Source: Byssovorax sp. (GTDB lineage Bacteria > Myxococcota_A > Polyangia > Polyangiales > Polyangiaceae). Taken from it: DNA of 64,000 bases. The stretch is from positions 1-64,000 of the forward strand of contig JANYGI010000131.1 in assembly GCA_025362495.1 (NCBI GenBank), read 5' to 3'. Below the pieces are notes generated by a model that saw only the letters and a program-made list of their open reading frames with translations, did no database searches and was not told the DNA's origin. A program made the position numbers and the translations under genes. Shown here one piece after another: positions 1-15,682 of this stretch. Every line of letters begins with the position of its first letter. Position 1 is the stretch's first letter.

Positions 1-732
1 CTTGATCGGCGGGATGTCGCGCGCGGCGATGATCTCCGGCCGGGCGAAATAGTAGCCCTGGAAGAGGGTATAGCCGAGGCGCATGGCCTCCTCGAGGTCT
101 TCGCGGGTGTCGATCGACTCGGCCAGCAAGCGCAGGCGCGGCGATCGAAATCGCTGCAGCAGGCCGGCGCGCGCGGCGCCCTCGACCCGCGCGAAGTCCA
201 CCTTGAGGATGTCGGCCACCGCGACCAGGGCCTCGAATCCAGGCCGCAGGGCGAAGCCGCCGATGACGATCTGGTAGCCGTCGCGGGTCAGGCGCTTGCA
301 CGCGCCGAGGACCTCGGCGTCCGGCTCGATCGGGGAGAGCAGCTCCACCGCGGTGCGATCGGCGGGTAACAAGCGCACGAGATCGCGGAGCAGCACGTCG
401 CGGTTGACGTTGACGAAGAGGCGCTGTCGCGGCGAGAGGACGTCGAGCCCGAAGGCGTGGAGTCCATCGTGGACGAGGCGCGAGGCCGCGTGGGTCCCGT
501 GCGTGCTCGCGGGCTCGTTCCCGGCCGCGTTGCGGAACACCAGCTCGTAACCGTAGGTGCGCCGGCGGATGTCGAGGATCGGTCGACGCGCGACGAAGAG
601 GTCTTTCTCCCTGGAGCTCGCGGGGGCAATCTCGCCGTGATCGCTCCCGGCGGTGGGCCTCGCGGTGATCGGCGCCCCGGCTCCGATGACGCCGGTCTGG
701 CTCGTCCCCGCGACACGGACCTGCTTCAACAT
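1..732 (-). CDS. EAL/HDOD signalling protein (3' part cut by window edge)
   Basis: The reading frame is open from an ATG at 732 to the left edge, giving 244 codons with no stop, so the C-terminus lies outside. After a variable N-terminal stretch of about 40 residues comes the opening typical of YuxH-type proteins: FVARRPILD, then YGYELVFRN. This is followed by FVNVNRDVL, a VELL strand, KVDFARV, LLAESIDTREDLE and GYTLFQGYYFARP, which trace a complete EAL-type barrel. In this family a HDOD domain follows, and that part would be off the window. EAL-HDOD proteins usually have degenerate EAL sites and act in signalling rather than as active c-di-GMP phosphodiesterases; I infer the same here. It is transcribed divergently from the kinase gene at 952. 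Confidence 0.85.
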   Translation of the reverse strand, partial: MLKQVRVAGTSQTGVIGAGAPITARPTAGSDHGEIAPASSREKDLFVARRPILDIRRRTYGYELVFRNAAGNEPASTHGTHAASRLVHDGLHAFGLDVLSPRQRLFVNVNRDVLLRDLVRLLPADRTAVELLSPIEPDAEVLGACKRLTRDGYQIVIGGFALRPGFEALVAVADILKVDFARVEGAARAGLLQRFRSPRLRLLAESIDTREDLEEAMRLGYTLFQGYYFARPEIIAARDIPPIK

Positions 733-951
733 CGTGGTCGATCGGGCCGTGGTCGAGCTCGAGGGTCGCGGAGGGTCGGCTGGGTGCCACTGGCTTGCCA
801 TATCGGTCGCGCTCCGCTCTTCGCGCCGAGGCCTCATCGGAGGGTCGGTGTGGGTCGATACGGCGGTCGCGGACGGAGCTTGAGCCAAAACGGCGCCCCG
901 CCTCGTCGGCGCGGAGATCTCGGCGGCCGACCTGGAGTATCCTCCGCCGCC

Positions 952-2715
952 ATGGCGGACGAGACCTCCCGGCGCTGCTCCGCCTGCGAGGCGCCCTTGC
1001 CGGCGGGATCGCGCTTCTGCGGCGCCTGCGGGCACGACGGCGCCTCGGATCCGGCCCTCATCGCCACCGAGCGTGTGGCCGTCGCGTCGCCGTCGATCGT
1101 CGCGCCGGCGCCGCCGCCGCTCCCGCCGATGCGCCTGCTCCCGGGGACGATGCTCTCCGTCTATCGCATCGAGTCGGTGCTCGGCGAAGGGGGGATGGGC
1201 GTCGTCTATCGCGCCCACGACACCGCCCGCGGCCGCGACGTCGCTCTCAAGTGTCTCCACACCAACCTCGCCGGAGACGCCGAGATCCGCCGCCGCTTCG
1301 CCCGCGAGGCCAAGGTGCTTCGATCGCAGTCGCACCCCTGCATCGTCGCCGTCTACGATTTCGTCGAGCACGAGTATCTCCTCGCGATCGTGATGGAGCT
1401 CGTCGAGGGGCCGAGCCTCGTCCACCACGTCGCCACCTGGCGTGGCCGCGTGCCCTTCGCGGAGATCCTGGTGATCTTCCGCGGCGTGCTGGAGGCCGTC
1501 GCCGAGGGGCACCGCCATGGCGTGATTCACCGCGATCTGAAGCCCGACAACATCCTCATCAGCGGAGGCGGGGGCGAGGCCTTGCGGCCCAAGGTGGTCG
1601 ATTTCGGCATCGCCAAGATCCTCGAAGGCACCACGTACACGATGACCGGCGCGCTGCTCGGCACCTGCTCGTACATGTCGCCCGAGCAGGTGCAGCGCCC
1701 GCACTCGGCCGATCCGCGGTCCGACGTCTACTCGCTCGGGATCACGCTCTATCAGGTCGTCACGGGGCGCGTGCCCTTCGACGGCAACAACCACTTTGCG
1801 ATCATGATGGCCCACGTGAACGAGGCGCCGCGCCCGCCGTCGGAGCTCCGCGCGGACATCCCTCCTCTGCTGGAGAAGCTGATCCTCGATTGCCTGGCGA
1901 AGGATCCCGCGGCGCGCCCCGCCTCGTGCGACGCCTTCCGCGAGCGGCTCGACGAGGCGCTCGGAGGCTTCGTGTCCACGCGCCCACCGGCGGATCCACG
2001 CCTGCTCCCCGCGGTGCTGAAAGGCCAGGGAGGCGAGGAGATGGTGCTCGTCCCGGCCGGACCGTTCCTGATGGGAAAATCGCGGCGAACGGTGGAGATC
2101 GACGCGTTCTACATGGATCGAACGCCGGTGACGAACCGCGAGTATCTCGCCTTCGTCGAGGTGACGGGCTATCGCCCCACCGACGTCGGCGCGAGCCGCT
2201 TCCTCAGCCACCTGCGCCTCGGGAAAATCCCCCGCGGGCAGGAGGATCATCCGGTGGTGTACGTGTCGTGGAACGACGCGCGGGCCTACGCGATGTGGGC
2301 GGGAAAGCGGCTGCCGACCGAGGCCGAGTGGGAGAAGGCCGCGCGCGGGACCGACGGCCGGAAATACCCCTGGGGCCGCTCGGAGCCGGGGACGAAGAAG
2401 GCCAATTACGGTCGCAAGGACGGCGCCCCGGCGCGGGTGGGCGCGTTCCCGGAGGGTGCCTCTCCGTATGGCATCCTCGATCTGGCGGGCAACGTGTGGG
2501 AGTGGTGTGAAGACCACGATGCGCCTTCGTTTTACGAGGATGGCCCGTCGCACAACCCCCGCAACGAGCAGCCCGGCGACAGAGCCTTGCTGGTGATGCG
2601 CGGCGGCTCGTACATGTACGGACCGCGGTCGTTACGCACCTACGCCCGGACGAGCTTCGCGGCCGAGGTGCGGTTCGCCGGCGGGGGATTCCGCTGCGTG
2701 CAGGCCGCGGGGTGA
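952..2715 (+). CDS. Zinc-ribbon Ser/Thr protein kinase fused to a formylglycine-generating-enzyme (SUMF1) fold
   Basis: The protein has 587 residues in three parts. Residues 8-27 are a zinc ribbon (CSAC then CGAC). Residues 71-335 are a Hanks-type kinase with glycine loop GEGGMGVVYRAHD at 78-90, lysine K100, HRDLKPDN at 193-200, DFG at 218-220 and SPEQ at 243. Residues about 360-587 are a SUMF1/FGE-sulfatase fold with PVTNREYLAFV, RLPTEAEWEKAAR, GNVWEWCED and MRGGSYMYG. The two cysteines that real FGE carries after RGGS are absent (Tyr and Leu), so formylglycine formation is unlikely and a binding role is more plausible. No transmembrane segment is seen. The frame is open far upstream, but ATG 952 directly precedes the zinc ribbon and has TATCCT at 938-943 just before it. 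Confidence 0.9.
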   Translation: MADETSRRCSACEAPLPAGSRFCGACGHDGASDPALIATERVAVASPSIVAPAPPPLPPMRLLPGTMLSVYRIESVLGEGGMGVVYRAHDTARGRDVALKCLHTNLAGDAEIRRRFAREAKVLRSQSHPCIVAVYDFVEHEYLLAIVMELVEGPSLVHHVATWRGRVPFAEILVIFRGVLEAVAEGHRHGVIHRDLKPDNILISGGGGEALRPKVVDFGIAKILEGTTYTMTGALLGTCSYMSPEQVQRPHSADPRSDVYSLGITLYQVVTGRVPFDGNNHFAIMMAHVNEAPRPPSELRADIPPLLEKLILDCLAKDPAARPASCDAFRERLDEALGGFVSTRPPADPRLLPAVLKGQGGEEMVLVPAGPFLMGKSRRTVEIDAFYMDRTPVTNREYLAFVEVTGYRPTDVGASRFLSHLRLGKIPRGQEDHPVVYVSWNDARAYAMWAGKRLPTEAEWEKAARGTDGRKYPWGRSEPGTKKANYGRKDGAPARVGAFPEGASPYGILDLAGNVWEWCEDHDAPSFYEDGPSHNPRNEQPGDRALLVMRGGSYMYGPRSLRTYARTSFAAEVRFAGGGFRCVQAAG

Positions 2716-2775
2716 AGGAGCGCGCAAACGTGCGCCGGCGTCGACTCGGCTCCGGAGCGGGTGTACGCGCGCCTG

Positions 2776-3633
2776 ATGCGTACACCCCTCATCGTCGCCC
2801 TCGCCGCTCTCGGCCTCTCCGCCTGCGGCAACAGCCAGGGAGAGGCTCCCGCTCCGAGCGCCGCGCCCCCCAAGGTCACGCCCCCGCCGACCACCGTCGT
2901 GTCCGCCGCGCCGCCTCCGTCGGCCTCGGCCGCCCCCGCGGTCGCGGCGCCGGTGCGCTCCACCGACGTGATCAAGACCAAGCAATGCGATCTCAAGGTG
3001 ACGCCCCTTCACCACGCTACGCTGCTGCTCCGGTGTGACAAGCTCGCCATCTACGTCGATCCCGTCCATGACGCGAGCTACGTCGGGCTGCCGAAGGCCG
3101 ACATGATCTTCATCACCGACATCCACGGTGATCACATGGATCCCGCAGGAATCGAGGCGATCCGCCAGGACGCGACCATTTTCGTGGCGCCTCCCGCTGT
3201 CGCGGAAAAGCTGGCTCCCACCGTCAAGAGCGTCACCGTCCTCAAGAACGGCGACAAGAAGACGCTCGGCGCCGTCGGGATCGAGGCGATCCCGATGTAC
3301 AACCTGGTCCGCGGGCCGAAGCCGACCGAGCGCTTCCACGACAAGGGCCGGGGCGATGGCTACGTGCTCACGATCGGCGAGACCCGCGTTTACCTTTCGG
3401 GTGACACCGAGTGTACGCCGGAGATGAAGGCCCTCAAGAACATCGACGTGGCCTTCGTGTGCATGAATCTGCCCTACACGATGCCGCCGGCCGAGGCCGC
3501 GGTGTGTGTCAACGCGTTCCGGCCGAAGGTGGTCTATCCGTACCACGACCGCGGATCGGACCTGGTGGAGTTTCAGAAGGCCATCACCGGCAAGGATGTC
3601 GAGGTGCGGATCCGCGACTGGTACGCGCCCTGA
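2776..3633 (+). CDS. MBL-fold metallo-hydrolase lipoprotein (UlaG-like)
   Basis: The 285-residue product has a lipoprotein signal peptide ending in LSAC, a Pro/Ala/Ser linker to about residue 65, then a metallo-beta-lactamase fold. The metal motif reads TDIHGDHMDP: the first histidine of the usual HxHxDH is an aspartate. Further conserved elements are YLSGDTECTPEM and YPYHDRGSD, in the positions of the later metal ligands of UlaG-like hydrolases. A GTG at 2761 is in frame, but the ATG at 2776 starts a far better signal peptide. It lies 60 bases after the kinase-FGE gene on the same strand. The substrate is unknown; it acts outside the cytoplasm on a membrane anchor. Confidence 0.8.
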   Translation: MRTPLIVALAALGLSACGNSQGEAPAPSAAPPKVTPPPTTVVSAAPPPSASAAPAVAAPVRSTDVIKTKQCDLKVTPLHHATLLLRCDKLAIYVDPVHDASYVGLPKADMIFITDIHGDHMDPAGIEAIRQDATIFVAPPAVAEKLAPTVKSVTVLKNGDKKTLGAVGIEAIPMYNLVRGPKPTERFHDKGRGDGYVLTIGETRVYLSGDTECTPEMKALKNIDVAFVCMNLPYTMPPAEAAVCVNAFRPKVVYPYHDRGSDLVEFQKAITGKDVEVRIRDWYAP

Positions 3634-3988: not shown

Positions 3989-4038
3989 CTAGGTTGGGCT
4001 CTCGACGGGCCGCTCCGGTCCGCAAAGGAAGATCCCCC

Positions 4039-4341
4039 ATGGTCCAGGTTGCCTTGTTCGTTCGCCTCATCGCCCGCCCCGGAAAGGAAGAGGAGGTCGC
4101 CGCGTTCCTCGCGGGCGCGCTGCCGCTCGCGGAGCAGGAGGCGGCCACGACGGCGTGGTTCGCGCTGCGCTTCGGCCCGAGCGAGTTCGGGATCTTCGAC
4201 GCGTTCCCCGACGACACCGGCCGCAAGGCGCACCTCGCGGGGCCGATCGCGGCCGCGCTGATGGCCAGGGCCGGCGAGCTCCTCGCCGAGCCGCCGCGCA
4301 TCGAGCAGGTCGATCTGCTGGCGGCGAAGCTGTCGCGCTGA
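4039..4341 (+). CDS. Antibiotic-biosynthesis-monooxygenase (ABM) domain protein
   Basis: This 100-residue protein has the dimeric ferredoxin-like pattern of ABM proteins. It opens with a beta strand (MVQVALFVRLIARPG), followed by helix KEEEVAAFLAGALPLAEQE, strand TTAWFALRFGP, strand FGIFDAFPDD and a C-terminal helix. ABM family members include heme- or quinone-degrading oxygenases and many proteins of unknown role; nothing here fixes the substrate. The start at 4039 is preceded by GGAAG. The upstream-extended frame from 3994 has no homology-like content. A strong hairpin overlaps its stop codon. The adjacent AraC-type remnant may once have regulated it. Confidence 0.7.
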   Translation: MVQVALFVRLIARPGKEEEVAAFLAGALPLAEQEAATTAWFALRFGPSEFGIFDAFPDDTGRKAHLAGPIAAALMARAGELLAEPPRIEQVDLLAAKLSR

Positions 4342-4456: not shown

Positions 4457-5842
4457 TCAGAGCGGATTGACGTTGACGATACCGTCGATGGCAGGGCCGG
4501 TGTAGAAGTCGCGCACGCGCTTCATGTCGCCCTTGGCCACCGCGAAGGCCGCGGCGGCGCCGGCCGCGGCGCTGGTCATGTCGCTCGACTGGCCGGGCAC
4601 GTCCTTGCCGGTGCTCGGATCGAAGCCATCGACGCTGCCGTCGGCGCGCACTCCGCCGTGCCAGCCCGTCTTGAGGTAGCCATTGCCCATCACGTAGAGC
4701 CAGTTGGAGTTGGCAGGGGTGCCATCGGGCCAGCCGTTGCGGTTCCGGGGATCCTTGGGCGTGTCGCCGTGGACCGTCATCACCACGGTGTCGGCGAGCG
4801 AGCGCGAGGTGCACGCCGGATCCTGCTGCGCGCCGAGATCGGTCAGGAAGGCGTCGAGCATCTTCCCGAGGGTGCCAACGGTGCTCTTGAGAGCGTTCAT
4901 GTCGCCGAACGCGCCGTGCGGATCGTCGCGCATCGCGGGGAAGATCACGCTCTGCGTGAGGCCCATCCGGAAGGCCTTGGCCGTCGTGATCAGCGCGCGG
5001 CCGATCTCGGCGAGCTTGTTGGGCGTGCCGCCGTCGACGCCGTAGTCGGAGAGGTCTTGAGCCGAGGGCAGGAGCTGAGCGGCGAGGTTCTTCCCGAGGA
5101 AGTTCGAGGCGGCCTTGCCGGTGCGGAGCGGGCGCGCCCAGGTCGAGCGGCCAGCGGCCTTGTTGAGGCCCAGGAAGGCCTTGTAATAGGCCTCGAACAG
5201 CGCAGCGTCCTTGGGGGCAGAGAGGATGGCCTGCGAGGCCGCGCTGTTGAAGAGCTGCACCAGGCCGTCGGCGTTACCCACCTTGGCGATGTCGGGCGCG
5301 CCCGGGGCCGCCCCGAAGTTCACCGGATCGATGGCGATGACGGGCAGGAGGGAGGGAGTCGCGCGCTGGATCGAGGCCAGCACCGCCAGCATGCTTTGAC
5401 CGGCGCCGAGCGTGGCGGCGGACATCGGCGTCGGGGTGTGCGTCTGGTTCGTCCCCGCCATGAAGGCCGAGATGCGCTTGCCCTTGTCGAGGCCCTGCCA
5501 GGGCGACTCGGGGGCGTAGTAAAAGGGCTTGTCGGTGTCCTTGGCCTTGATCTGCTGGCCCTGGGCGTGGAACGCGAAGCCACCGTCGGTGGAGGTCGCG
5601 ATCTCGGTGTGCGGCCAGAGGAGCTGGAACCAGGCGAATCCGCCGTCGCCGGCGACGATGCTCACCGATCGGCAGGTGGCCGAACAGGAGGCCTCGTCGG
5701 CCATCGCGCTGCCGGCAGAGTCGGAGACGACGTCGAGCACCTTGGCCCGATCGAGGGCCAGCACCGCGCCCGCGGCCGCGGTGAAGCGGAGGAAGTTACG
5801 GCGTCCGTTGCCGTCGAGGTTCTTGAGGCGATCGTTCACCAT
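4457..5842 (-). CDS. Tat-exported protein of unknown function, last gene of heme-lipoprotein operon
   Basis: The 461-residue product begins with a twin-arginine signal, GRRNFLRF at about residues 13-20, followed by an alanine-rich hydrophobic stretch, so a folded protein is probably exported. The mature part has no TM segment and shows blocks such as FMAGTNQTHTP, MTVHGDTPKDPRNRNGWPD and WLYVMGNGYLKTGWHGG. The overall look recalls the Tat-exported DUF1501/DUF1552 proteins that accompany heme proteins of the DUF1585/DUF1592 type, but I cannot confirm the family. It starts 13 bases after the upstream lipoprotein gene, consistent with co-transcription. Its function is probably tied to the heme proteins encoded upstream. 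Confidence 0.7.
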   Translation of the reverse strand: MVNDRLKNLDGNGRRNFLRFTAAAGAVLALDRAKVLDVVSDSAGSAMADEASCSATCRSVSIVAGDGGFAWFQLLWPHTEIATSTDGGFAFHAQGQQIKAKDTDKPFYYAPESPWQGLDKGKRISAFMAGTNQTHTPTPMSAATLGAGQSMLAVLASIQRATPSLLPVIAIDPVNFGAAPGAPDIAKVGNADGLVQLFNSAASQAILSAPKDAALFEAYYKAFLGLNKAAGRSTWARPLRTGKAASNFLGKNLAAQLLPSAQDLSDYGVDGGTPNKLAEIGRALITTAKAFRMGLTQSVIFPAMRDDPHGAFGDMNALKSTVGTLGKMLDAFLTDLGAQQDPACTSRSLADTVVMTVHGDTPKDPRNRNGWPDGTPANSNWLYVMGNGYLKTGWHGGVRADGSVDGFDPSTGKDVPGQSSDMTSAAAGAAAAFAVAKGDMKRVRDFYTGPAIDGIVNVNPL

Positions 5843-5855
5843 GGGAGCTCTCCGT

Positions 5856-6593
5856 CTACTCGCAGGAGTGGGCCGCGCTGAGCATCGTTGCGACCGCGAT
5901 CTTCTTGCCCGTGTCGAGATCCGATGCCGCCTTCACCATGCTGTTGCAGATGGCGACGTGATCGGGAGTCGCCGGGCGGCCGATGAGGCAGCTGACGGCG
6001 TCGGGGTTGCAGTTGTTCTGAGCGTCGAAGACTGCAGGGCCCGTGCCATCGATCTTGCACTGATCGACGTTCGGCAAGTTGGCGATGATCTCCGGCGCGG
6101 CCTGCACGAAGATGTCGAAGAGCTTGGCCGCGCCGGCCGAGCTCCAGAGGATCGTCTCGCCGACGCGAGCGTCGTAGTTGGCGGCGCCGAGCGCGCCCGC
6201 GGCGCCCTTCCAGAGCTCGCCGGCCGAGGGCGGCTTGCTCGTCGCATCCATGTTCACGCCGAAGCTGATGAGCACGTTGCGGAGCGTGCCGTACTGGATC
6301 TTCTGGCACGAGTGGAGCCGGGTGCGGACCTCGGGCGGGCCCTCTTCCTGGCGCTGCGCGAGGATGTCGAAGGGATCGCGCGCCACGCCCGCGCCGAGAT
6401 CGGCGACGTGGTTGAAGGTGTTGGTCTCGCCGCCGGCGTAAGCGCCCGGCGTCTGGACGGGATCCTTGGTGGGATCTTCCTGGAAGGTCTTGTGGCGCGT
6501 ATCGGGCGCGAGGTCGTCGGGGGCTTGTCCCGCGCAGCTCGCCGTCCCGAGGAGGGCCGTGACCGCGAGAGAGGAAAGGATGGCTCGTTTCAT
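5856..6593 (-). CDS. Lipoprotein of unknown function, third gene of heme-lipoprotein operon
   Basis: The product has 245 residues and a clear lipoprotein signal peptide with lipobox TASC (Cys20). The mature part carries no CxxCH and few conserved-looking blocks: LHSCQKIQYGTLRNVLISFG, LWSSAGAAKLFDIFVQAAPE and a cysteine-containing C-terminus (NCNPDAVSCLIG, SAAHSCE). Six cysteines in the mature part could form disulfides. It lies between the DUF1592-like gene (20-base gap) and the Tat-exported protein gene (13-base gap), so all are probably one transcript. I do not recognise the family. Confidence 0.7.
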   Translation of the reverse strand: MKRAILSSLAVTALLGTASCAGQAPDDLAPDTRHKTFQEDPTKDPVQTPGAYAGGETNTFNHVADLGAGVARDPFDILAQRQEEGPPEVRTRLHSCQKIQYGTLRNVLISFGVNMDATSKPPSAGELWKGAAGALGAANYDARVGETILWSSAGAAKLFDIFVQAAPEIIANLPNVDQCKIDGTGPAVFDAQNNCNPDAVSCLIGRPATPDHVAICNSMVKAASDLDTGKKIAVATMLSAAHSCE

Positions 6594-6613
6594 CGCTGAT
6601 CTCCGGTTCGCGG

Positions 6614-7852
6614 CTAGAAAGAGGTGAAATCGTCGCTCGTGAGCATGGCCCGGAGCGTCTTCTTGAGGTTCTGCCCGTCGCCCTGGAACTCGGCGAGGTA
6701 GGGCTTTAGAACCGCGGCAGGCACGGTGGCGAGATCACTCACGATGTCTTCCTTCGACATGGTGAAGTTCCACAGGCGAGAGACGGCGCACTCGCTCACG
6801 TCGGGATCCTTGGCGATCGCCGCGCCGAGGGCGGGCAGATCGGGAGCGGCCGTCTTCATGCGCCACCACGTCGTCTCGCCCGGCTTGAGCCAGTGCGACA
6901 TCTCGGTCGGCACGGCGTCGGGGGCGGTGGGCGTCTTGACCGAGATCTTGCTCTGGTAGGCGCCGTTCTCGTCGAAGTTCGCGAAGAGCGGCGCGACGTG
7001 GTTGATCGTCGTGTGGCAGTTGGCGCAGATGACGCTCTTGGTGTCCTGGAAATCGATCGGGGCAGTGGCCACTGACTCGAAAGGCCAGGGAGAGGTGTAG
7101 TCGGCGCTGCCCTTGTGGATGGGGGTGCCCGAGTACTCGGCGGGGAACTTGGTGCAGACGAAGATCTCCTGCACCCAGCGCACGCGGCGGAAGGCCATGC
7201 TGCCGTAGAACTGGTACATCACGCCGGGATCGGTGAGGACGCCGGCCTCGGCGGGAGCCCCGCTCTTGCAGTCGCCGTCGACGAAGGCGTGATTGTCGGC
7301 GTCGTAGGTCGGGCAGTTGTTGCTCGAGGCCGTGAAGAGCGTGGAGAACGGGAGCCCTTCGGCCATCACCCGCGCGGCGAACGTCGGCGCGGTGTCGCGG
7401 CTCGGCGCCTTGCCGTTCGCGCCGCCGCCGAGGCGCATCACGTCTTTCCACCACTTGATCATCCGCTCCTGGAAGCGGGGATCGGCGAGCATCGCGTCGA
7501 TGGCGGCCTCGTAGGCGACCTTCTGATCCTTGGCGCTGGCGATGGCCTTGATCTGCGCGAGCGTGGGGAGCTGGCGAAGGAGCTTGAGCGAGGCCGTGCG
7601 GAGAGCCTCGTTGTACTCCTTCGGCCGCGCGTCGAGGAGCTGCGTGCCAGTCTTGTCGAGGACGGGCGCGTCGTCGACCAGCAGCGTCCCGCCGGAGGAG
7701 TCGCCCCCGCCGGAGCCGCCATTGCCGCCGTTGAGATCGTTCGGCGCCGCTTTCGTGCAGGCGGCGAGGAGTGGTATCGCCGCGACGACGAGGGCCGGGA
7801 GGATCGAGTGGAGTCGCATCGGACGCATCGGGCGCCTGCCTTTCGTTTCCAT
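6614..7852 (-). CDS. Lipoprotein with one c-type heme motif (DUF1592/DUF1588-like)
   Basis: The 412-residue product has a signal peptide with lipobox LAAC (Cys32), a Gly/Ser-rich linker, and a helical body. The element LLRQLPTLAQIKAI and the following LADPRFQERMIKWW resemble the DUF1592-type proteins of Planctomycetes and Myxococcota. One c-type heme site, CANCH, lies at 276-280. A C-terminal block ends LKKTLRAMLTSDDFTSF, also typical of that group. An ATG at 7828 or 7819 would give a shorter, more standard signal peptide; 7852 is the most upstream ATG that does not overlap the preceding gene. The gap to the upstream two-heme gene is 8 bases. It is probably anchored to a membrane and involved in electron transfer. 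Confidence 0.75.
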   Translation of the reverse strand: METKGRRPMRPMRLHSILPALVVAAIPLLAACTKAAPNDLNGGNGGSGGGDSSGGTLLVDDAPVLDKTGTQLLDARPKEYNEALRTASLKLLRQLPTLAQIKAIASAKDQKVAYEAAIDAMLADPRFQERMIKWWKDVMRLGGGANGKAPSRDTAPTFAARVMAEGLPFSTLFTASSNNCPTYDADNHAFVDGDCKSGAPAEAGVLTDPGVMYQFYGSMAFRRVRWVQEIFVCTKFPAEYSGTPIHKGSADYTSPWPFESVATAPIDFQDTKSVICANCHTTINHVAPLFANFDENGAYQSKISVKTPTAPDAVPTEMSHWLKPGETTWWRMKTAAPDLPALGAAIAKDPDVSECAVSRLWNFTMSKEDIVSDLATVPAAVLKPYLAEFQGDGQNLKKTLRAMLTSDDFTSF

Positions 7853-7860
7853 GAAGGGTC

Positions 7861-9141
7861 TCACTTCTCCGCCGAAATCCACTGGGAGACGCTCTGCTTG
7901 AAGGCGCCGAATTTCCCGCTGTCGCCGCCGAATTTGTAGGGGTGCGCGGCGTTGCCGCCCGGATCGGTGGTGATGAAGAGCTGGCTCTGATCCGCGTTCG
8001 CGGGGCTGACTCGGTTCTTGATCTGCGAGCACGCGGCCGCGGCGTCTGTGGCGAGCTGCGACATGTCGACAGCACCCTTGGCCTGAGCGTTTCCGCCGCC
8101 ATGGCACATCACGCAGTTGGACTTGAGCAGGCCGGCGGCGTTGTCGGTGAACGACTGCACGTCCTTGCAACCGCCGGTGGTGGTGCCGCCGTCGGTGCCG
8201 CCATCCATCATCGTGGTGAAGGGCTCGATCTTCTGGAAGCCGACCGTGAGCTTGGCGCCCTTCTGCCAGTTGGTGAGGATCAGCGTGCCCGGCCCGAGCG
8301 CGCCGGCCTGGCCGGAGTCGAACTCTTGATCGACGTTGGAGAGGCTGTCGACCGGATCGGGATCGCTCTCTTTACCGACGGGAAACACGCTGAAGAGCGG
8401 GTGAACGAGGTGGACGCCGAGGGCCGCTGTCGGGTGGACCTCGAGGTCGTCGAGCTCGAGCACGTGGTCGTCGAGCTGGACGGCGTTGAAGGTGAGCGCC
8501 ATGCCGGTGTACTCGTCGCCGAGCGCGGTGAAGTACACGGCGTTGAAGCCGATGATCGGCGCGAAGGGCTCGATCGATTTGCCGGCGTCGAGCACCGTCG
8601 TGGTGACGATGCTCTTCGCTTCTTCCGTGAGCCAGGCCTGGATCGCCGCGTAGAGCGTGTCCTTGTACTGGGCCGAATCGAGCTTCTTGTAGGTGTGCTG
8701 CGGGCCGGCGACAGGATAGGTGAGGAGCTTGCTCTCCTTGGCGTCCTTGACGACGATGCCAGGCCAGCTCGAGATCGTCGCGTAGACGTCGGGGCCGGCG
8801 AGGAACGGAGTGTCGGCGATGCCGCCCGCGTCGTGGCAGCTGCCGCACGCGGTGTAGAAGTCGGGCTCGAGCGCGGCGAAGAGCTCTTTGCCGTGGTTGG
8901 GCGCGGCGCCGCCGGTGCCGCCCGTGCCGGCGCTGCTGCCCCCCGAGCCGCCCGTCCCGAGATCGAGGGTGTCGGGGGCCGGCGTGCACGCGCCGGCCGC
9001 GACGGCGGCACCGAGCGCGGAAGCGCCGGCAGCGACGAGCCAGAGACTCCAGCGGGTGAGGGGGGTCAATCGGGGGTGCACGCTGCAGCGTTCAGAGCAA
9101 GCCGCGAGCCACGAACGGCCCGACGCGTAGGCGCAATTCAT
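7861..9141 (-). CDS. Two-heme-motif c-type cytochrome lipoprotein, first gene of operon
   Basis: The 426-residue product has a hydrophobic segment ending in AGAC (Cys52), which looks like a lipobox, then a Gly/Ser/Thr-rich linker. There are two c-type heme sites: CGSCH at 99-103 and CVMCH at 343-347. Between them lies a beta-rich region resembling copper-type-II-monooxygenase-like or carbohydrate-binding folds (FNAVQLDDHVLELDDLEVH, TLILTNWQKGAKLTVGF), which I cannot assign firmly. The first 20 residues contain extra cysteines and are not signal-like, so a GTG at 9080 is a credible alternative start. It leads a four-gene minus-strand operon and is divergent from the lipoprotein gene at 9301. 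Confidence 0.75.
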   Translation of the reverse strand: MNCAYASGRSWLAACSERCSVHPRLTPLTRWSLWLVAAGASALGAAVAAGACTPAPDTLDLGTGGSGGSSAGTGGTGGAAPNHGKELFAALEPDFYTACGSCHDAGGIADTPFLAGPDVYATISSWPGIVVKDAKESKLLTYPVAGPQHTYKKLDSAQYKDTLYAAIQAWLTEEAKSIVTTTVLDAGKSIEPFAPIIGFNAVYFTALGDEYTGMALTFNAVQLDDHVLELDDLEVHPTAALGVHLVHPLFSVFPVGKESDPDPVDSLSNVDQEFDSGQAGALGPGTLILTNWQKGAKLTVGFQKIEPFTTMMDGGTDGGTTTGGCKDVQSFTDNAAGLLKSNCVMCHGGGNAQAKGAVDMSQLATDAAAACSQIKNRVSPANADQSQLFITTDPGGNAAHPYKFGGDSGKFGAFKQSVSQWISAEK

Positions 9142-9220: not shown

Positions 9221-9300
9221 TCCAGGCTGACCCTCGGTCGAACCGAAATTCGATGTCTCAAATTCGGCCCGCGAGATCCGTTTGGGATACCGGAGAATTC

Positions 9301-10047
9301 ATGAACCGAACCCTGCTGACCCTCGCCATGGCCTCCCTCCTCGCGACCGGCTGCGCTCGCGCGAACCTCGCCCCCGCGGCGGCGAGCCCCGCGCCTTCGA
9401 GCGTCGAGAAGGCGCCGGCCGCAGCGACGGCGGAGACGACCACCACGGCCGAGGGCGCCAGGGCGACGGACGCGACCGCGAGCGACGCCGAGACGACGGG
9501 CGCGCGCAAGGCCGGAGATTTCATCGTCTATCGCTTCACGGGGAGCTTCCGCAAGACGCCGCTGACGCTGACCGAGCGCGTGATCGCGCGGAGCGGAGCG
9601 ATGCTGACGGTGGACATCACGGCGGAAGAGGGGGAGTCGAAGCGCCAGCTCCGCGTGAAGATCAACGAGGCTTCGGCCGTGAAGAACGATGTCGTCGCGG
9701 TGAGCGTGATCGAGAACGGCGCGGAGAAGCCGGCCGGGATCGAGGCCTACGAGGCCCTCCTCGCTGCCACGTCGCTCGCGGCCGACGAGAACGAGGCCAT
9801 GCTCGGCGCCGAGGACGCGATGCTCGACGTCGGCGGCGCGCCGCTCCCGGTGCGCAAGACCAGCTACCGCGTGCGCGTGGGCAAGAAGTCGGCGACGCTG
9901 CGCACGGTGGAGAGCGAGGGCTTTGCCTGGGGCGATCTCGGCGGCGAGATCACGGCCGGCAATGGCAAGGTGCTTTACCGCGCCGAGGTGGTCGAGCTCG
10001 GCCACGCGGACGGCAAGGGCGTCGCGACTGCCCAGGTCGAGAAGTAG
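9301..10047 (+). CDS. Lipoprotein of unknown function
   Basis: The 248-residue product has a short lipoprotein signal peptide with lipobox ATGC (Cys18). A low-complexity Ala/Thr/Glu stretch runs to about residue 72, then comes a beta-rich domain beginning GDFIVYRFTGSFRKTPLTLTERV. Charged strands such as MLTVDITAEEG and ATLRTVESEGFAWGDLGGEI follow. The domain organisation suggests a periplasmic or surface-anchored fold without catalytic motifs I recognise. The ATG at 9301 has GGAGAATTC directly before it, a good ribosome binding site. It is convergent with hemD; a 16-base palindrome separates the two genes. Confidence 0.75.
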   Translation: MNRTLLTLAMASLLATGCARANLAPAAASPAPSSVEKAPAAATAETTTTAEGARATDATASDAETTGARKAGDFIVYRFTGSFRKTPLTLTERVIARSGAMLTVDITAEEGESKRQLRVKINEASAVKNDVVAVSVIENGAEKPAGIEAYEALLAATSLAADENEAMLGAEDAMLDVGGAPLPVRKTSYRVRVGKKSATLRTVESEGFAWGDLGGEITAGNGKVLYRAEVVELGHADGKGVATAQVEK

Positions 10048-11962: not shown

Positions 11963-14900
11963 TCAGTCGTCGCCGTCGTCGGCCACGCCGTCGCTGATCG
12001 GATCGTCGGTCTTCGGCGTCTTCAGGATGGCGCCGTCGGCCGCGTCTTTGCGCACGACGATGGTGCGACGCGACGTCGTGTCGCTGTTCTCGCGCGCGAC
12101 GACGGTGATGAGGTTGACGCCGGGGCGGAGGGGCGCGTCGAACTCGAACGAGGCCTTCTTCGGGTCGGCGCCGTCACGATTCGACTTGTAGTAGAGCTTG
12201 CGCGAGCCGACGAAGACGTAGATGTCGAGCAGCTTCTCGGTGTCGCTGGCGTCGCCGGTGATCTTCACCTTGTCGCCCTTGGTGGCCATCGCCGCGGCCT
12301 TCACGTCGAGCGTCGGCGGCGCGTGCAGGTATACGTCGTCGAACGCGGGCGCGGCGCCCACGGAGCCGCCTGCGGCGACCTCTTTCGCGGCGACGAAGGC
12401 GAAGCGGCCCTGGCCGAGATCGATCTTGTCGAGGTCGCCAACGGTGCCGAGCAGCGAGGCCGTTGCGCCCGCCGCGAGGCGGCCGAAGCCCCGTGCGCCT
12501 GGACTCGGTGAGCCGAGGAGCGTGGCGCCCTGAGCGCCGACCTTCACGGCGCCGCTGCCGCGCTGCACGGTGAGCGGCGCCTCGATCGGGATCTTCACCT
12601 TCTCGCTCGCGACCTCGCGCAGATCGCTGTCGGCGACCGAGAGCGAGAACGTGACCTCGGGCTCGGTGAGCTGCTGCTGCACGTCGAACCAGAAGGCCAC
12701 CTTGCGCACGTCGCCGGGCATCATGTTCGACACGTCGAAGCGGCCGGCGTGGAGCAGGAGCCCCTCGCCCGAGAGGTTGACGATGTTGGCCTGCGTCTCG
12801 AACGAGCGGCCCTTGCCGACGTTCTTGATCGTCAGGTACATCGTGACTTGCTCGCCCTTCTGCAGGCGACCATCGCCGTTGCCCGTGCGGTCGTCGGCGA
12901 TCTGGTAGCTGTACTCGAAGACCGGGCGATCGATCGCGGTGACGGTCGGTCGGATCTCGACGACCGCGGGCTCGGGGCCGCTGCCCGGGCCGCCGGTGCC
13001 CGGCGCGCCGAAGGCCTCGAACTTCACCTTCAGGCCGTCGCTGCGCGTGAGCGCGTCCTTCGGGATCTTGCAGGCGCGCTTCGCGTTCTTGTCGCGCGGC
13101 TTGCTCGATCCGATCTTGCGACCCTCGTAGTCGCACCAGCCGAGCGGAGCCTTCTCCGTCTTCGACTGGCCAGGAGCGATCTTGCCGAAGACGAGCTCTT
13201 TCCCTTCAAAATAAGGGTTATCGCTCTCGGTCATGCCGCGCAGGCGGTACACCGGCGCCTTGCCGTTGTTCTTCACCGTCACGCGGAGCTCCATCGGCTC
13301 GCCGGCGGTGACCTCGGGCGTTGCCTTGTCGGTCTCGACCTTGACCTCGAGATCCTTGCCGACGGCGAGCGTCTCGTTCGCGGCGGGCTCCGACCAGTCG
13401 ACGCCGATCTTCGTCAGCTCCGCGGAGACCTTGCCGATCTCTTCCTTGCGCGCCTGCTCGATGAAGTCGTGCGCGGCGTGGAGCTGGTCGAGGCGCTTGG
13501 TGTTGCTCGGCAGGTGCATCGCGAGATCGCGCGCGAACTTGATCGGGAAATCGAGCTGGAACTCGTCGTCCGCGACGTCGCTGCCGCGCTCGCGCATGGC
13601 CTCGCGCTCGGCGAGCGGGAAGTCGTAACGGACGACCTCGCCGGGCTTGCCGGCGGGGACCGCGCGGGCGTTGTGCAGGCTCGCGGCCAGATCGCGCTCG
13701 CGCACGCCGTCCTTGCGCACGGTGATGTCCATCTCGACCTCGTCGACCGTCATAGGATCGAGCTCGATGTCCGGCGTGACGCCGACGCCCTGGATCGAGA
13801 TGTCGCCGGGCGTGAGGTACTGCGCGATGGTGAGCTTGAGGGCGGCCTTCTCGGGCGTGATGTCCGGGAAGACGAGCTGCACGCTGCCCTTGCCGAACGT
13901 CTGCTGCCCGACGATGAGCGCGCGATCGTTGTTCTTGAGCGCGCCGGCGACGATCTCGCTCGCGCTCGCGCTGTTGCCGCTGACGAGCACCACGAGCGGG
14001 TAGGGAGGCTCGGTGCCAGGCGCCTTCGCGCGCTTCTCGTCGCGACCTTCCGAGTAGCCGACCGTCGAGACGAGCGTGCCCTCGACGAGGAACTTGTCGG
14101 CGATGCGCGCCGCCTGATCGAGCAGGCCGCCGGGGTTGCCGCGGAGATCGAGCACGACGCCCTTGATCGGACCCTTCTGCCCGATGTCGATCAGCGCCTT
14201 GTCGATCTCGGCCGACGACGTCGCCTGGAACTGCTTGAGCCGGATGTACGCGATGCCCTGATCGAGCGCGCGCGACTCGACCGACTTCACCTTGATCACC
14301 TCGCGGTTGAGCTTGATCTCCCTGGATCCGGCCCAGCCGCCGTCGCCCTCGCGCTGCACCCAGACGGTGACCGGCGTGCCGGGCTCGCCGCGCAGGCGGC
14401 GCACAGCGTCGTCGAGCGGCATGTTCATCGTCGCCTCGTTGTTGATCTTGACGATGCGATCCATGCGCTTGAGCCCGGCGCGACCGGCGGGCGTCTCGGG
14501 CATCGGGTTCATCACCGTGAGCATCTGATCGCGGATCGAGATCACGATCCCGAGGCCGCCGAAGGCGCCCGACGTGGAGAGGTTCATCTCCTTGTAGGCG
14601 TCGGGGCTCATGAACGTGCTGTGCGGATCGAGCGTGTGCAGCATGCCGTTGCAGGCCGCGTACTCGACCTCGCGGAGATCGACCTCGGTGCCGCGCAGGT
14701 TCTTCTGCAGGAACGAAAACACCTCGCGTAGCCGGGCAGAGACGTCCCAGGGGCCCTGCACGTTGTCGACGCGGAACTTCTTCTCCGCCGTCTCGACGCG
14801 GACGGTGACCTCGTTCGGATCGTCGGTCAGGACGATGACCTGGGCGACGTCGCGCTGAACGTAGTTGAGCGCCGAAAGGAGCATGTCCTTCGGCTTGACG

Positions 14901-15124
14901 CGGTCCGGGTCGACGTATTTGTCCCGGATCATCTTCAGCGTCTCGTTCACCGCCTCGAGGCGCGTGAGGTCGTATGGCGTCTTTTGCGGCGTGCCGGTGA
15001 CGGCGAGCGCCGGTTCGAATCCTCGCCAGAGGCCGCCCGATCCGAACTGGAGGGCGAAATAGGCGGCGAGGGCGAAGGCGCCGAAGACGACCATCACCTT
15101 GCCCAGACGCTCGATAATCCGCAT
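11963..15124 (-). CDS. Long-form C-terminal processing protease (S41 family, delta-proteobacterial type)
   Basis: The product has 1053 residues. An N-terminal membrane anchor spans about 8-28. A PDZ domain follows around 185-265 (GGLGIVISI, PAGRAGLKRMDRIVKIN). The S41 peptidase core contains GNSASASE at 383-390 with the catalytic serine and FGKGSVQ at 410-416 with the catalytic lysine K412, giving the Ser/Lys dyad. After about residue 560 come several beta-sandwich repeats, including an APHP-like domain (TVKNNGKAPVYRLRG, TIKNVGKGRSFETQAN). This long architecture is the prc_long_Delta group, restricted to this lineage. It is probably periplasmic, trimming C-termini of envelope proteins. TATACT lies 9 bases before the ATG. 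Confidence 0.92.
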   Translation of the reverse strand: MRIIERLGKVMVVFGAFALAAYFALQFGSGGLWRGFEPALAVTGTPQKTPYDLTRLEAVNETLKMIRDKYVDPDRVKPKDMLLSALNYVQRDVAQVIVLTDDPNEVTVRVETAEKKFRVDNVQGPWDVSARLREVFSFLQKNLRGTEVDLREVEYAACNGMLHTLDPHSTFMSPDAYKEMNLSTSGAFGGLGIVISIRDQMLTVMNPMPETPAGRAGLKRMDRIVKINNEATMNMPLDDAVRRLRGEPGTPVTVWVQREGDGGWAGSREIKLNREVIKVKSVESRALDQGIAYIRLKQFQATSSAEIDKALIDIGQKGPIKGVVLDLRGNPGGLLDQAARIADKFLVEGTLVSTVGYSEGRDEKRAKAPGTEPPYPLVVLVSGNSASASEIVAGALKNNDRALIVGQQTFGKGSVQLVFPDITPEKAALKLTIAQYLTPGDISIQGVGVTPDIELDPMTVDEVEMDITVRKDGVRERDLAASLHNARAVPAGKPGEVVRYDFPLAEREAMRERGSDVADDEFQLDFPIKFARDLAMHLPSNTKRLDQLHAAHDFIEQARKEEIGKVSAELTKIGVDWSEPAANETLAVGKDLEVKVETDKATPEVTAGEPMELRVTVKNNGKAPVYRLRGMTESDNPYFEGKELVFGKIAPGQSKTEKAPLGWCDYEGRKIGSSKPRDKNAKRACKIPKDALTRSDGLKVKFEAFGAPGTGGPGSGPEPAVVEIRPTVTAIDRPVFEYSYQIADDRTGNGDGRLQKGEQVTMYLTIKNVGKGRSFETQANIVNLSGEGLLLHAGRFDVSNMMPGDVRKVAFWFDVQQQLTEPEVTFSLSVADSDLREVASEKVKIPIEAPLTVQRGSGAVKVGAQGATLLGSPSPGARGFGRLAAGATASLLGTVGDLDKIDLGQGRFAFVAAKEVAAGGSVGAAPAFDDVYLHAPPTLDVKAAAMATKGDKVKITGDASDTEKLLDIYVFVGSRKLYYKSNRDGADPKKASFEFDAPLRPGVNLITVVARENSDTTSRRTIVVRKDAADGAILKTPKTDDPISDGVADDGDD

Positions 15125-15317: not shown

Positions 15318-15548
15318 TTACGCCGTCTTCTTGTCGTCGCCCGAGGTCGGCTTCGCTTCGAGCGCGGCGGCCTCTTCCTTCTTGACGGCGGGCAGCTTGG
15401 CCGGCTCGTCGTCGTCCTTCAGGCCCTTCTTGAAGTTCTTGATGCCTTCGCCGAGGCCTTTTCCGATGTCGGCGATGCGGCCGGCACCGAACAGGAGCAG
15501 CGCGACGACGAGGATGACAAGTATCTCGCTAAACCCTAATCGGCCCAT
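15318..15548 (-). CDS. tatA: Sec-independent protein translocase subunit TatA
   Basis: The 76-residue protein is a classic TatA: a short N-terminus, one TM helix (SEILVILVVALLLFGAGRI), the FGAGRI hinge, an amphipathic helix (IGKGLGEGIKNFKKGLKDDD) and an acidic/lysine-rich tail. TatA oligomers form the pore of the twin-arginine pathway in the inner membrane, which exports folded proteins such as the RR-signal protein encoded at 4457-5842. The ATG at 15548 has GGGAG before it; an in-frame extension to 15635 adds non-homologous sequence. No tatB or tatC is adjacent. Confidence 0.93.
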   Translation of the reverse strand: MGRLGFSEILVILVVALLLFGAGRIADIGKGLGEGIKNFKKGLKDDDEPAKLPAVKKEEAAALEAKPTSGDDKKTA

Positions 15549-15682
15549 GACAACGCTCCCGCAACGGACACTTGCGATCACCGGGACGCCCGGCGGCTGA
15601 ACAGGACGAGTACCACCCCCGCGCCGACGGGGCAACGAGCGCGGTTCGTCGTCGTCGAAGCGGCCGGCTGCCCGGCGCGCAT

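What the first reader, a model, noticed from the sequence alone, without database searches (positions are those of the whole stretch)
4457..9141. Operon for three lipoproteins with c-type heme sites and a Tat-exported protein
The first gene has two CxxCH motifs, the second one, and both have lipoprotein signals; a third lipoprotein and an RR-signal protein complete a tightly spaced four-gene unit. Heme proteins plus an exported cofactor-type enzyme suggest a surface or periplasmic redox machine of unknown substrate.
Basis: partly seen in the sequence, partly recalled or inferred. Interest (0 to 1): 0.6.

Follow-up and report, generated by a model that had tools for sequence, protein, structure and literature searches.

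The report
Four-gene heme and phosphatase-fold envelope operon
This is a real, tightly packed four-gene unit that recurs across a group of bacteria (Polyangia); it makes two heme-site lipoproteins, a third lipoprotein of unknown kind, and an exported protein with a phosphatase-type fold, and appears to be a far-diverged relative of poorly understood 'planctomycete cytochrome' gene pairs.

Summary
Four minus-strand genes (9141..4457) are spaced 8, 20 and 13 bases apart, with a divergent and a convergent neighbour. Gene 1 has two CxxCH sites, gene 2 one, genes 1-3 have lipoprotein cysteines, gene 4 an RR signal. The unit is conserved: 38 of 42 named loci carry all four genes in this order; it is confined to class Polyangia as far as searched, and an ancient whole-operon duplicate survives in the same genome. 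Gene 4 has no Pfam family hit, but profile comparison (97.5%, E 7.6e-12) and a predicted alkaline-phosphatase-superfamily fold (Z up to 11.6) make it a diverged DUF1501 relative, with part of the usual motif set replaced. Gene 3 is an orphan, cysteine-rich family. So this is a Polyangia-specific four-gene variant of the PSCyt-DUF1501 gene pairs, whose function is unknown. A heme-coupled envelope enzyme is the likeliest mechanism, but redox activity, substrate and even heme attachment are inferred. New variant of a known kind; moderate interest.

The parts
7861..9141 (-). g1: predicted lipoprotein (lipobox Cys52), two c-type heme domains (CGSCH, CVMCH) around a beta-sandwich domain (about residues 187-310)
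   Evidence: Pfam Cytochrom_C 24.9 bits (cut-off 21.3) and Cytochrome_CBB3 26.4 (cut-off 27); invariant H149 and H400 in 32 of 32 as likely second heme ligands; AF2 model pLDDT 77.3, sandwich best Z 8.7
6614..7852 (-). g2: predicted lipoprotein (Cys32), PSCyt2 + PSCyt3/DUF1588 + PSD2/DUF1585 type, one heme site (CANCH)
   Evidence: PSCyt2 37.1 bits over cut-off; PSCyt2 and PSCyt3 in 33 of 33, PSD2 in 27 of 33 aligned proteins; profile match to PSD2-set proteins 99.4%, E 5.5e-21, 291 columns
5856..6593 (-). g3: predicted lipoprotein (Cys20) of an undescribed family; six conserved cysteines beside the lipobox one, no heme motif
   Evidence: no Pfam, NCBIfam or PHROGs match; C96, C179, C202, C244 36/36, C195 and C216 32/36; no profile link to PSD1, PSD2 or DUF1800 sets
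4457..5842 (-). g4: predicted Tat-exported protein, alkaline-phosphatase-superfamily fold, diverged DUF1501 relative
   Evidence: R14-R15 38/38; AF2 pLDDT 84.7; VIA-align rows all of the alkaline phosphatase superfamily, Z 10.2-11.6; hhalign to DUF1501 97.5%

Best explanation
The four genes are one operon that builds an envelope protein assembly, a Polyangia-specific, four-gene branch of the widespread PSCyt/PSD-DUF1501 gene pairs. Shown: gene order, conservation, homology of g2 and g4, predicted fold of g4, joint duplication. Inferred: g4 is folded in the cytoplasm with a metal, exported by Tat, and sits in the periplasm or at the cell surface with the lipid-anchored g2 (one heme) as its direct partner; g1 (two hemes, each with an invariant second histidine, so probably bis-His and electron-transferring rather than oxygen-binding) passes electrons to or from g2; g3 is a disulfide-braced lipoprotein scaffold. 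g4 binds, and may open or modify, a phosphate- or sulfate-bearing or otherwise acidic polymer or ester, while the hemes take up or supply electrons. I put about 0.9 on the identity part and about 0.35 on the redox-coupled mechanism; the confidence below is for the whole statement.
For: Same four genes, order and strand in 38 of 42 named loci and 31 of 40 others (overlapping genomes); no further gene is shared beyond close relatives. All four gene trees recover the duplicate-operon clade (support 0.994-1.0) and pairwise distances correlate 0.77-0.93 against at most 0.25 in 1000 permutations. g2: PSCyt2/PSCyt3 33 of 33, profile 99.4%. g4: DUF1501 97.5%, E 7.6e-12; six control comparisons with unrelated profiles 0.0-0.4%; alkaline phosphatase fold. 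In the same genome 10 of 11 DUF1501 loci have a neighbouring gene with a PSCyt/PSD/DUF1800-type match (nine, one), so g2 near g4 repeats a known pairing. Heme-site and second-ligand conservation. g4 keeps H135, D307, H309 and D360 in 38 of 38, just after strands of the model.
Against: No substrate gene, transporter, glycosidase or oxidoreductase is linked. The usual DUF1501 motifs are mostly missing in g4: pattern [DENS][FL][GACS]R[TSPK] in 8 of 38 against 27 of 33, [RKST][DSQ]H in 3 of 38 against 32 of 33, and position 66, near the first metal ligand, varies as N 19, D 12, T 5, S 1, I 1, so g4 could be inactive. g1 is not detected in four loci that hold g2-g4 (L053, L058, L059, L065), and lone g4 relatives exist (L054-L056), so the heme relay is not always needed. 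Foldseek alone gave no g4 match better than E 0.043.
Confidence: 0.42

Rival explanations
1. g4 is a plain hydrolase (phosphatase, phosphodiesterase or sulfatase type) and the heme lipoproteins are partners for anchoring or sensing, with no electron transfer in the reaction.
For: The fold rows are NPP, PafA, SPAP and sulfatases; D307, H309, D360, H135 invariant; sulfatase genes were reported near PSCyt genes in Verrucomicrobia (PMC5615132, section 13 read).
Against: The motif around the usual last ligand (RDH) is replaced by a WPDGT-type motif in 36 of 38 and the first-ligand position varies; strict conservation of three heme sites is unexplained.
Confidence: 0.25
2. The assembly is a binding or structural envelope complex, g4 being a catalytically dead alkaline-phosphatase scaffold that holds a polymer, with hemes tuned for structure or sensing.
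For: Loss of several usual motifs in g4; lipoprotein-rich make-up; beta-sandwich in g1.
Against: Invariant His/Asp just after strands of the model suggest a kept metal site; Tat export usually serves proteins folded with a cofactor (established knowledge).
Confidence: 0.2
3. An electron conduit to outside acceptors, of the porin-cytochrome type.
For: Two heme lipoproteins with three hemes; 15 of 32 g1 proteins show weak MtrC/MtrF-domain matches (best E 0.0014).
Against: No porin or protein with more than two heme motifs in the unit, and no further widely conserved neighbour; it does not explain g4.
Confidence: 0.07

Closest known systems
DUF1501 (PF07394) proteins next to PSCyt2/PSD1 or DUF1800 proteins (PVC bacteria and others)
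   Same: Tat-type signal, alkaline-phosphatase-type fold, nearby gene with PSCyt/PSD domains; homologous by profile
   Different: g4 escapes the Pfam model (0 of 38) and lacks most of the FGR- and RDH-type motifs; four separate genes including g3
PSCyt3 (DUF1588) / DUF1592 / DUF1585 proteins paired with DUF1552 (HXXSHH)
   Same: g2 shares PSCyt3 and PSD2 and aligns over 291 columns by profile; such genes are abundant in Polyangiales, up to 26 HXXSHH matches per genome
   Different: g2 starts with a PSCyt2-type region and its partner g4 is nearer DUF1501 (97.5%) than DUF1552 (23.1%)
Alkaline phosphatase superfamily enzymes (NPP, PafA, SPAP, sulfatases)
   Same: Predicted fold over residues 52-460, Z 10.2-11.6
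   Different: 6-14% identity; nucleophile and full ligand set not established in g4

Membership tests
DUF1501 (PF07394) | Match to the Pfam model | tested here: not met
   0 of 38 g4 proteins match at E up to 10
DUF1501 (PF07394) | Homology to DUF1501 proteins | tested here: met
   hhalign 97.5%, E 7.6e-12, 237 columns, motif-unfiltered set of 33; controls 0.0-0.4%
DUF1501 (PF07394) | Typical motifs [DN][ST]H, FGR-type, RDH-type | tested here: not met
   g4 has DPH instead of [DN][ST]H (38/38), the FGR-type pattern in 8/38 and the RDH-type pattern in 3/38
DUF1501 (PF07394) | Near a PSCyt/PSD or DUF1800 gene | tested here: met
   g2 is two genes upstream in every complete locus
Alkaline phosphatase superfamily | Fold | tested here: met
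   All 50 listed rows belong to it, Z 10.2-11.6, 222-280 residues aligned
Alkaline phosphatase superfamily | Two-metal ligand set and nucleophile | tested here: inconclusive
   D307, H309, D360 and H135 invariant, but position 66 varies and the RDH-type His is mostly absent; no coordinates to measure
PSCyt2 (PF07583) | Match over the Pfam cut-off | tested here: met
   g2 37.1 bits, cut-off 29.8, part of the model only (19-88 of 209)
PSCyt3 / DUF1588 (PF07627) | Match over the Pfam cut-off | tested here: inconclusive
   25.5 bits against 27 for the window protein; 33 of 33 aligned proteins match at E up to 1
PSCyt3 / DUF1588 (PF07627) | Covalent heme at CxxCH | not testable with these tools
   CANCH conserved 33/33
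Porin-cytochrome electron conduit | Porin gene beside the cytochromes | tested here: not met
   None among the four genes; no other gene is widely shared in the flanks of 42 loci plus the window

The most novel reading that the evidence does not exclude
An alkaline-phosphatase-type fold that has been rebuilt into the substrate-binding or catalytic part of a heme-coupled envelope oxidoreductase, with g3 as a new kind of subunit: a minimal, experimentally approachable example of what the 'planctomycete cytochrome' plus DUF1501 systems do.
Probability: 0.25. Interest if true: 0.65.

Novelty: new variant of a known kind. Interest (0 to 1): 0.42.

Why it matters
PSCyt/PSD genes with DUF1501 or DUF1552 partners occur in dozens of copies in some genomes (PMC2754498, passage: PSD1 and PSC2 domains 41 times each in R. 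baltica; here up to 26 HXXSHH matches in one genome), yet their function is unknown (PMC5615132, section 13). This operon spreads over four small genes what is often fused, gives a clear predicted fold for the Tat partner, and occurs in named strains (Minicystis rosea, Polyangium), so the partner question could be tested by pull-down and knock-out.

Tried and rejected
g3 as a split-off PSD1, PSD2 or DUF1800 piece: rejected, profile probabilities 0.2-0.3%; g3 against g2 matched only in the signal peptide. g3 and PDB: one weak, probably chance hit, E 0.019; g2 and g4 profiles none at E up to 0.1. g1 middle domain as a known enzyme domain: only generic beta-sandwiches, best Z 8.7 to SadB; the heme domains were not covered by those rows. 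g4 as closer to DUF1552: 7.0% with 7 sequences, 23.1% with 31, against 97.5% for DUF1501 with 33.

A first g4-DUF1501 comparison with few sequences was weak (6.9% with five, 1.5% with three, 13.0% with eight sequences); a second (97.7%) used sequences picked in part by the motif itself, so I replaced it by a set not filtered by motif (33 of 37 kept, 4 dropped for length). The larger DUF1552 set kept 24 of 28 new loci by length and 7 of 10 earlier ones. The g2-PSD2 comparison used 20 of 28 loci, picked by having a C..CH motif, so it leans towards a match; the Pfam scans do not. Alignments A3-A6 left out near-duplicates and incomplete or frame-broken copies: they hold 37, 35, 32 and 31 of the 42 named loci, plus the window. 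The tree test used 29 loci plus the window, L033 and L062 being dropped for a broken or cut g1. Two hits outside class Polyangia at E about 2e-4 were not followed; they may be ordinary DUF1501 proteins. Papers: searches found none that describes this four-gene unit; one search listed 10 of 64 papers and those listed held no DUF term.

Full report
The unit. Four genes run leftwards on the minus strand, 9141..7861, 7852..6614, 6593..5856 and 5842..4457. Gaps are 8, 20 and 13 bases. The open frame upstream (9253..10047, +) is divergent and the next one downstream (3994..4341, +) is convergent, so the four stand alone. That they are co-transcribed is inferred from spacing.

Gene 1 is a predicted lipoprotein with two cytochrome c domains (Pfam Cytochrom_C over its cut-off). 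In 32 aligned proteins the heme sites, and one further histidine behind each (H149, H400), are kept, which suggests bis-histidine hemes. Between them lies a beta-sandwich in the predicted model (pLDDT 77.3) with only generic structural neighbours (best Z 8.7). The start codon is uncertain.

Gene 2 carries PSCyt2 (37.1 bits, over the cut-off) and PSCyt3/DUF1588 (25.5, just under it); 33 of 33 aligned proteins match both and 27 of 33 match PSD2/DUF1585. A profile comparison with Polyangiales PSD2 proteins gives 99.4% over 291 columns (that set was picked for a heme motif).

Gene 3 has no family in Pfam, NCBIfam or PHROGs, one lipobox cysteine and six further conserved cysteines, plus invariant H62, H94, R143, E146, D160, E168. 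It is not a split PSD1, PSD2 or DUF1800 piece as far as profiles tell.

Gene 4 has an RR signal and no consistent Pfam family apart from the signal. Its model (pLDDT 84.7) aligns with alkaline-phosphatase-superfamily structures in all 50 listed rows, Z 10.2-11.6, 222-280 residues; Foldseek by itself was weak (E 0.043 at best). Against 33 DUF1501 proteins not filtered by motif, hhalign gives 97.5%, E 7.6e-12; the DUF1501 set against g1, g2 and g3 profiles, and g4 against PSD1, PSD2 and DUF1800 sets, give 0.0-0.4%. Against DUF1552 g4 gives 23.1%. DUF1501 and DUF1552 match each other at 99.1%. So g4 is a sister branch of DUF1501 that the Pfam model does not recognise. Its site looks rebuilt: H135, D307, H309 and D360 are in 38 of 38, but the FGR-type and RDH-type motifs are mostly gone and position 66 varies. 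The mapping onto the catalytic ligands is my inference, as I had no coordinates.

Spread. 42 of 183 genomes of the order have a g4 relative. In a draw of 377 genomes of the phylum, 27 match, 25 in the same class and two outside it only at E about 2e-4. Named carriers include Minicystis rosea DSM 24000, Polyangium fumosum DSM 14668 and three other Polyangium strains, and MAGs labelled Sandaracinus and Kofleriaceae. All four genes are present in order in 38 of 42 named loci, the other four being cut by contig ends, and in 31 of 40 loci of the second set. Of those nine exceptions, four hold g2-g3-g4 without a detectable g1 (L053, L058, L059, L065), two hold g3-g4 (L052, cut by the contig end, and L057), and three hold a lone g4 relative (L054-L056). 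Beyond the four genes, shared neighbours occur only among close relatives.

Duplication. The own genome has a second full operon (G000:C178; 52, 54, 47 and 41% for g4, g3, g2 and g1). Its clade with the copies of Minicystis, Polyangium and one MAG is recovered in all four gene trees with support 0.994-1.0, and the distance matrices correlate 0.77-0.93. The four genes have been duplicated and inherited together. This supports a joint function; vertical descent alone also raises such correlations.

Setting. The same genome has 12 DUF1501 and 14 HXXSHH matches. Of the 11 DUF1501 loci that I fetched, nine have a neighbouring gene with a PSCyt, PSD or DUF1800 match (several are under the Pfam cut-offs) and a tenth, on contig C179, has a DUF1800 gene beside it. 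The operon thus repeats, in a diverged and split form, a known pairing.

Literature. He et al. 2017 (PMC5615132; section 13 read in full) report that PSCyt2 and PSCyt3 genes sit beside two families of unknown genes, that nothing is known of their function, and suggest a role in carbohydrate use. PMC5122149 (passages) notes DUF1501-DUF1800 pairs and a Tat signal. PMC4452313 (passages) calls DUF1501 uncharacterised. PMC2754498 (passages) counts PSD1 and PSC2 domains 41 times each in R. baltica. That DUF1501 is placed in the alkaline phosphatase clan of Pfam is from memory.

Mechanism. Most likely an envelope assembly in which g4 meets the substrate, g2 brings a heme to it, g1 relays electrons and g3 braces the whole. 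Identity and fold are shown or strongly supported; localisation, heme loading, metal, partner contacts, redox chemistry and substrate are inferred. A plain hydrolase or a binding scaffold remain open.

Verdict. A real, conserved four-gene variant, not described in the papers searched, of a known but unexplained kind of system. It is not a new category, but it gives a clean handle on an open question.

Noticed in passing
window 15318..15635 (-): A TatA/B/E gene (59.9 bits) lies about 6 kb from the operon that makes the Tat-signal protein; probably chance.
   Followed up: partly
window 457..2715 (+): Protein kinase domain fused to an FGE-sulfatase (sulfatase-modifying-factor-like) domain.
   Followed up: no
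window 11963..15124 (-): Large S41 peptidase with PDZ and CARDB domains; it stays near the operon, with the HemD and TerB-type genes, in Minicystis and Polyangium.
   Followed up: partly
window 2761..3633 (+): Predicted lipoprotein with a metallo-beta-lactamase domain (66.9 bits).
   Followed up: no
L033 10422..11677 and L092: g1 of the first Minicystis rosea operon is split between two reading frames: a frameshift or a sequencing error.
   Followed up: partly
L054 7102..8352, L055 6637..7899, L056 6674..7942 (all -): Lone g4 relatives with a lipoprotein-like start instead of a Tat signal and no g1-g3 nearby.
   Followed up: partly
L053, L058, L059, L065: A long-form branch with g2-g3-g4 but no detectable g1.
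   Followed up: partly
genomes G180, G181, G060 and others: Up to 24 PSD2 and 26 HXXSHH matches per genome in Polyangiales, many as adjacent pairs.
   Followed up: no
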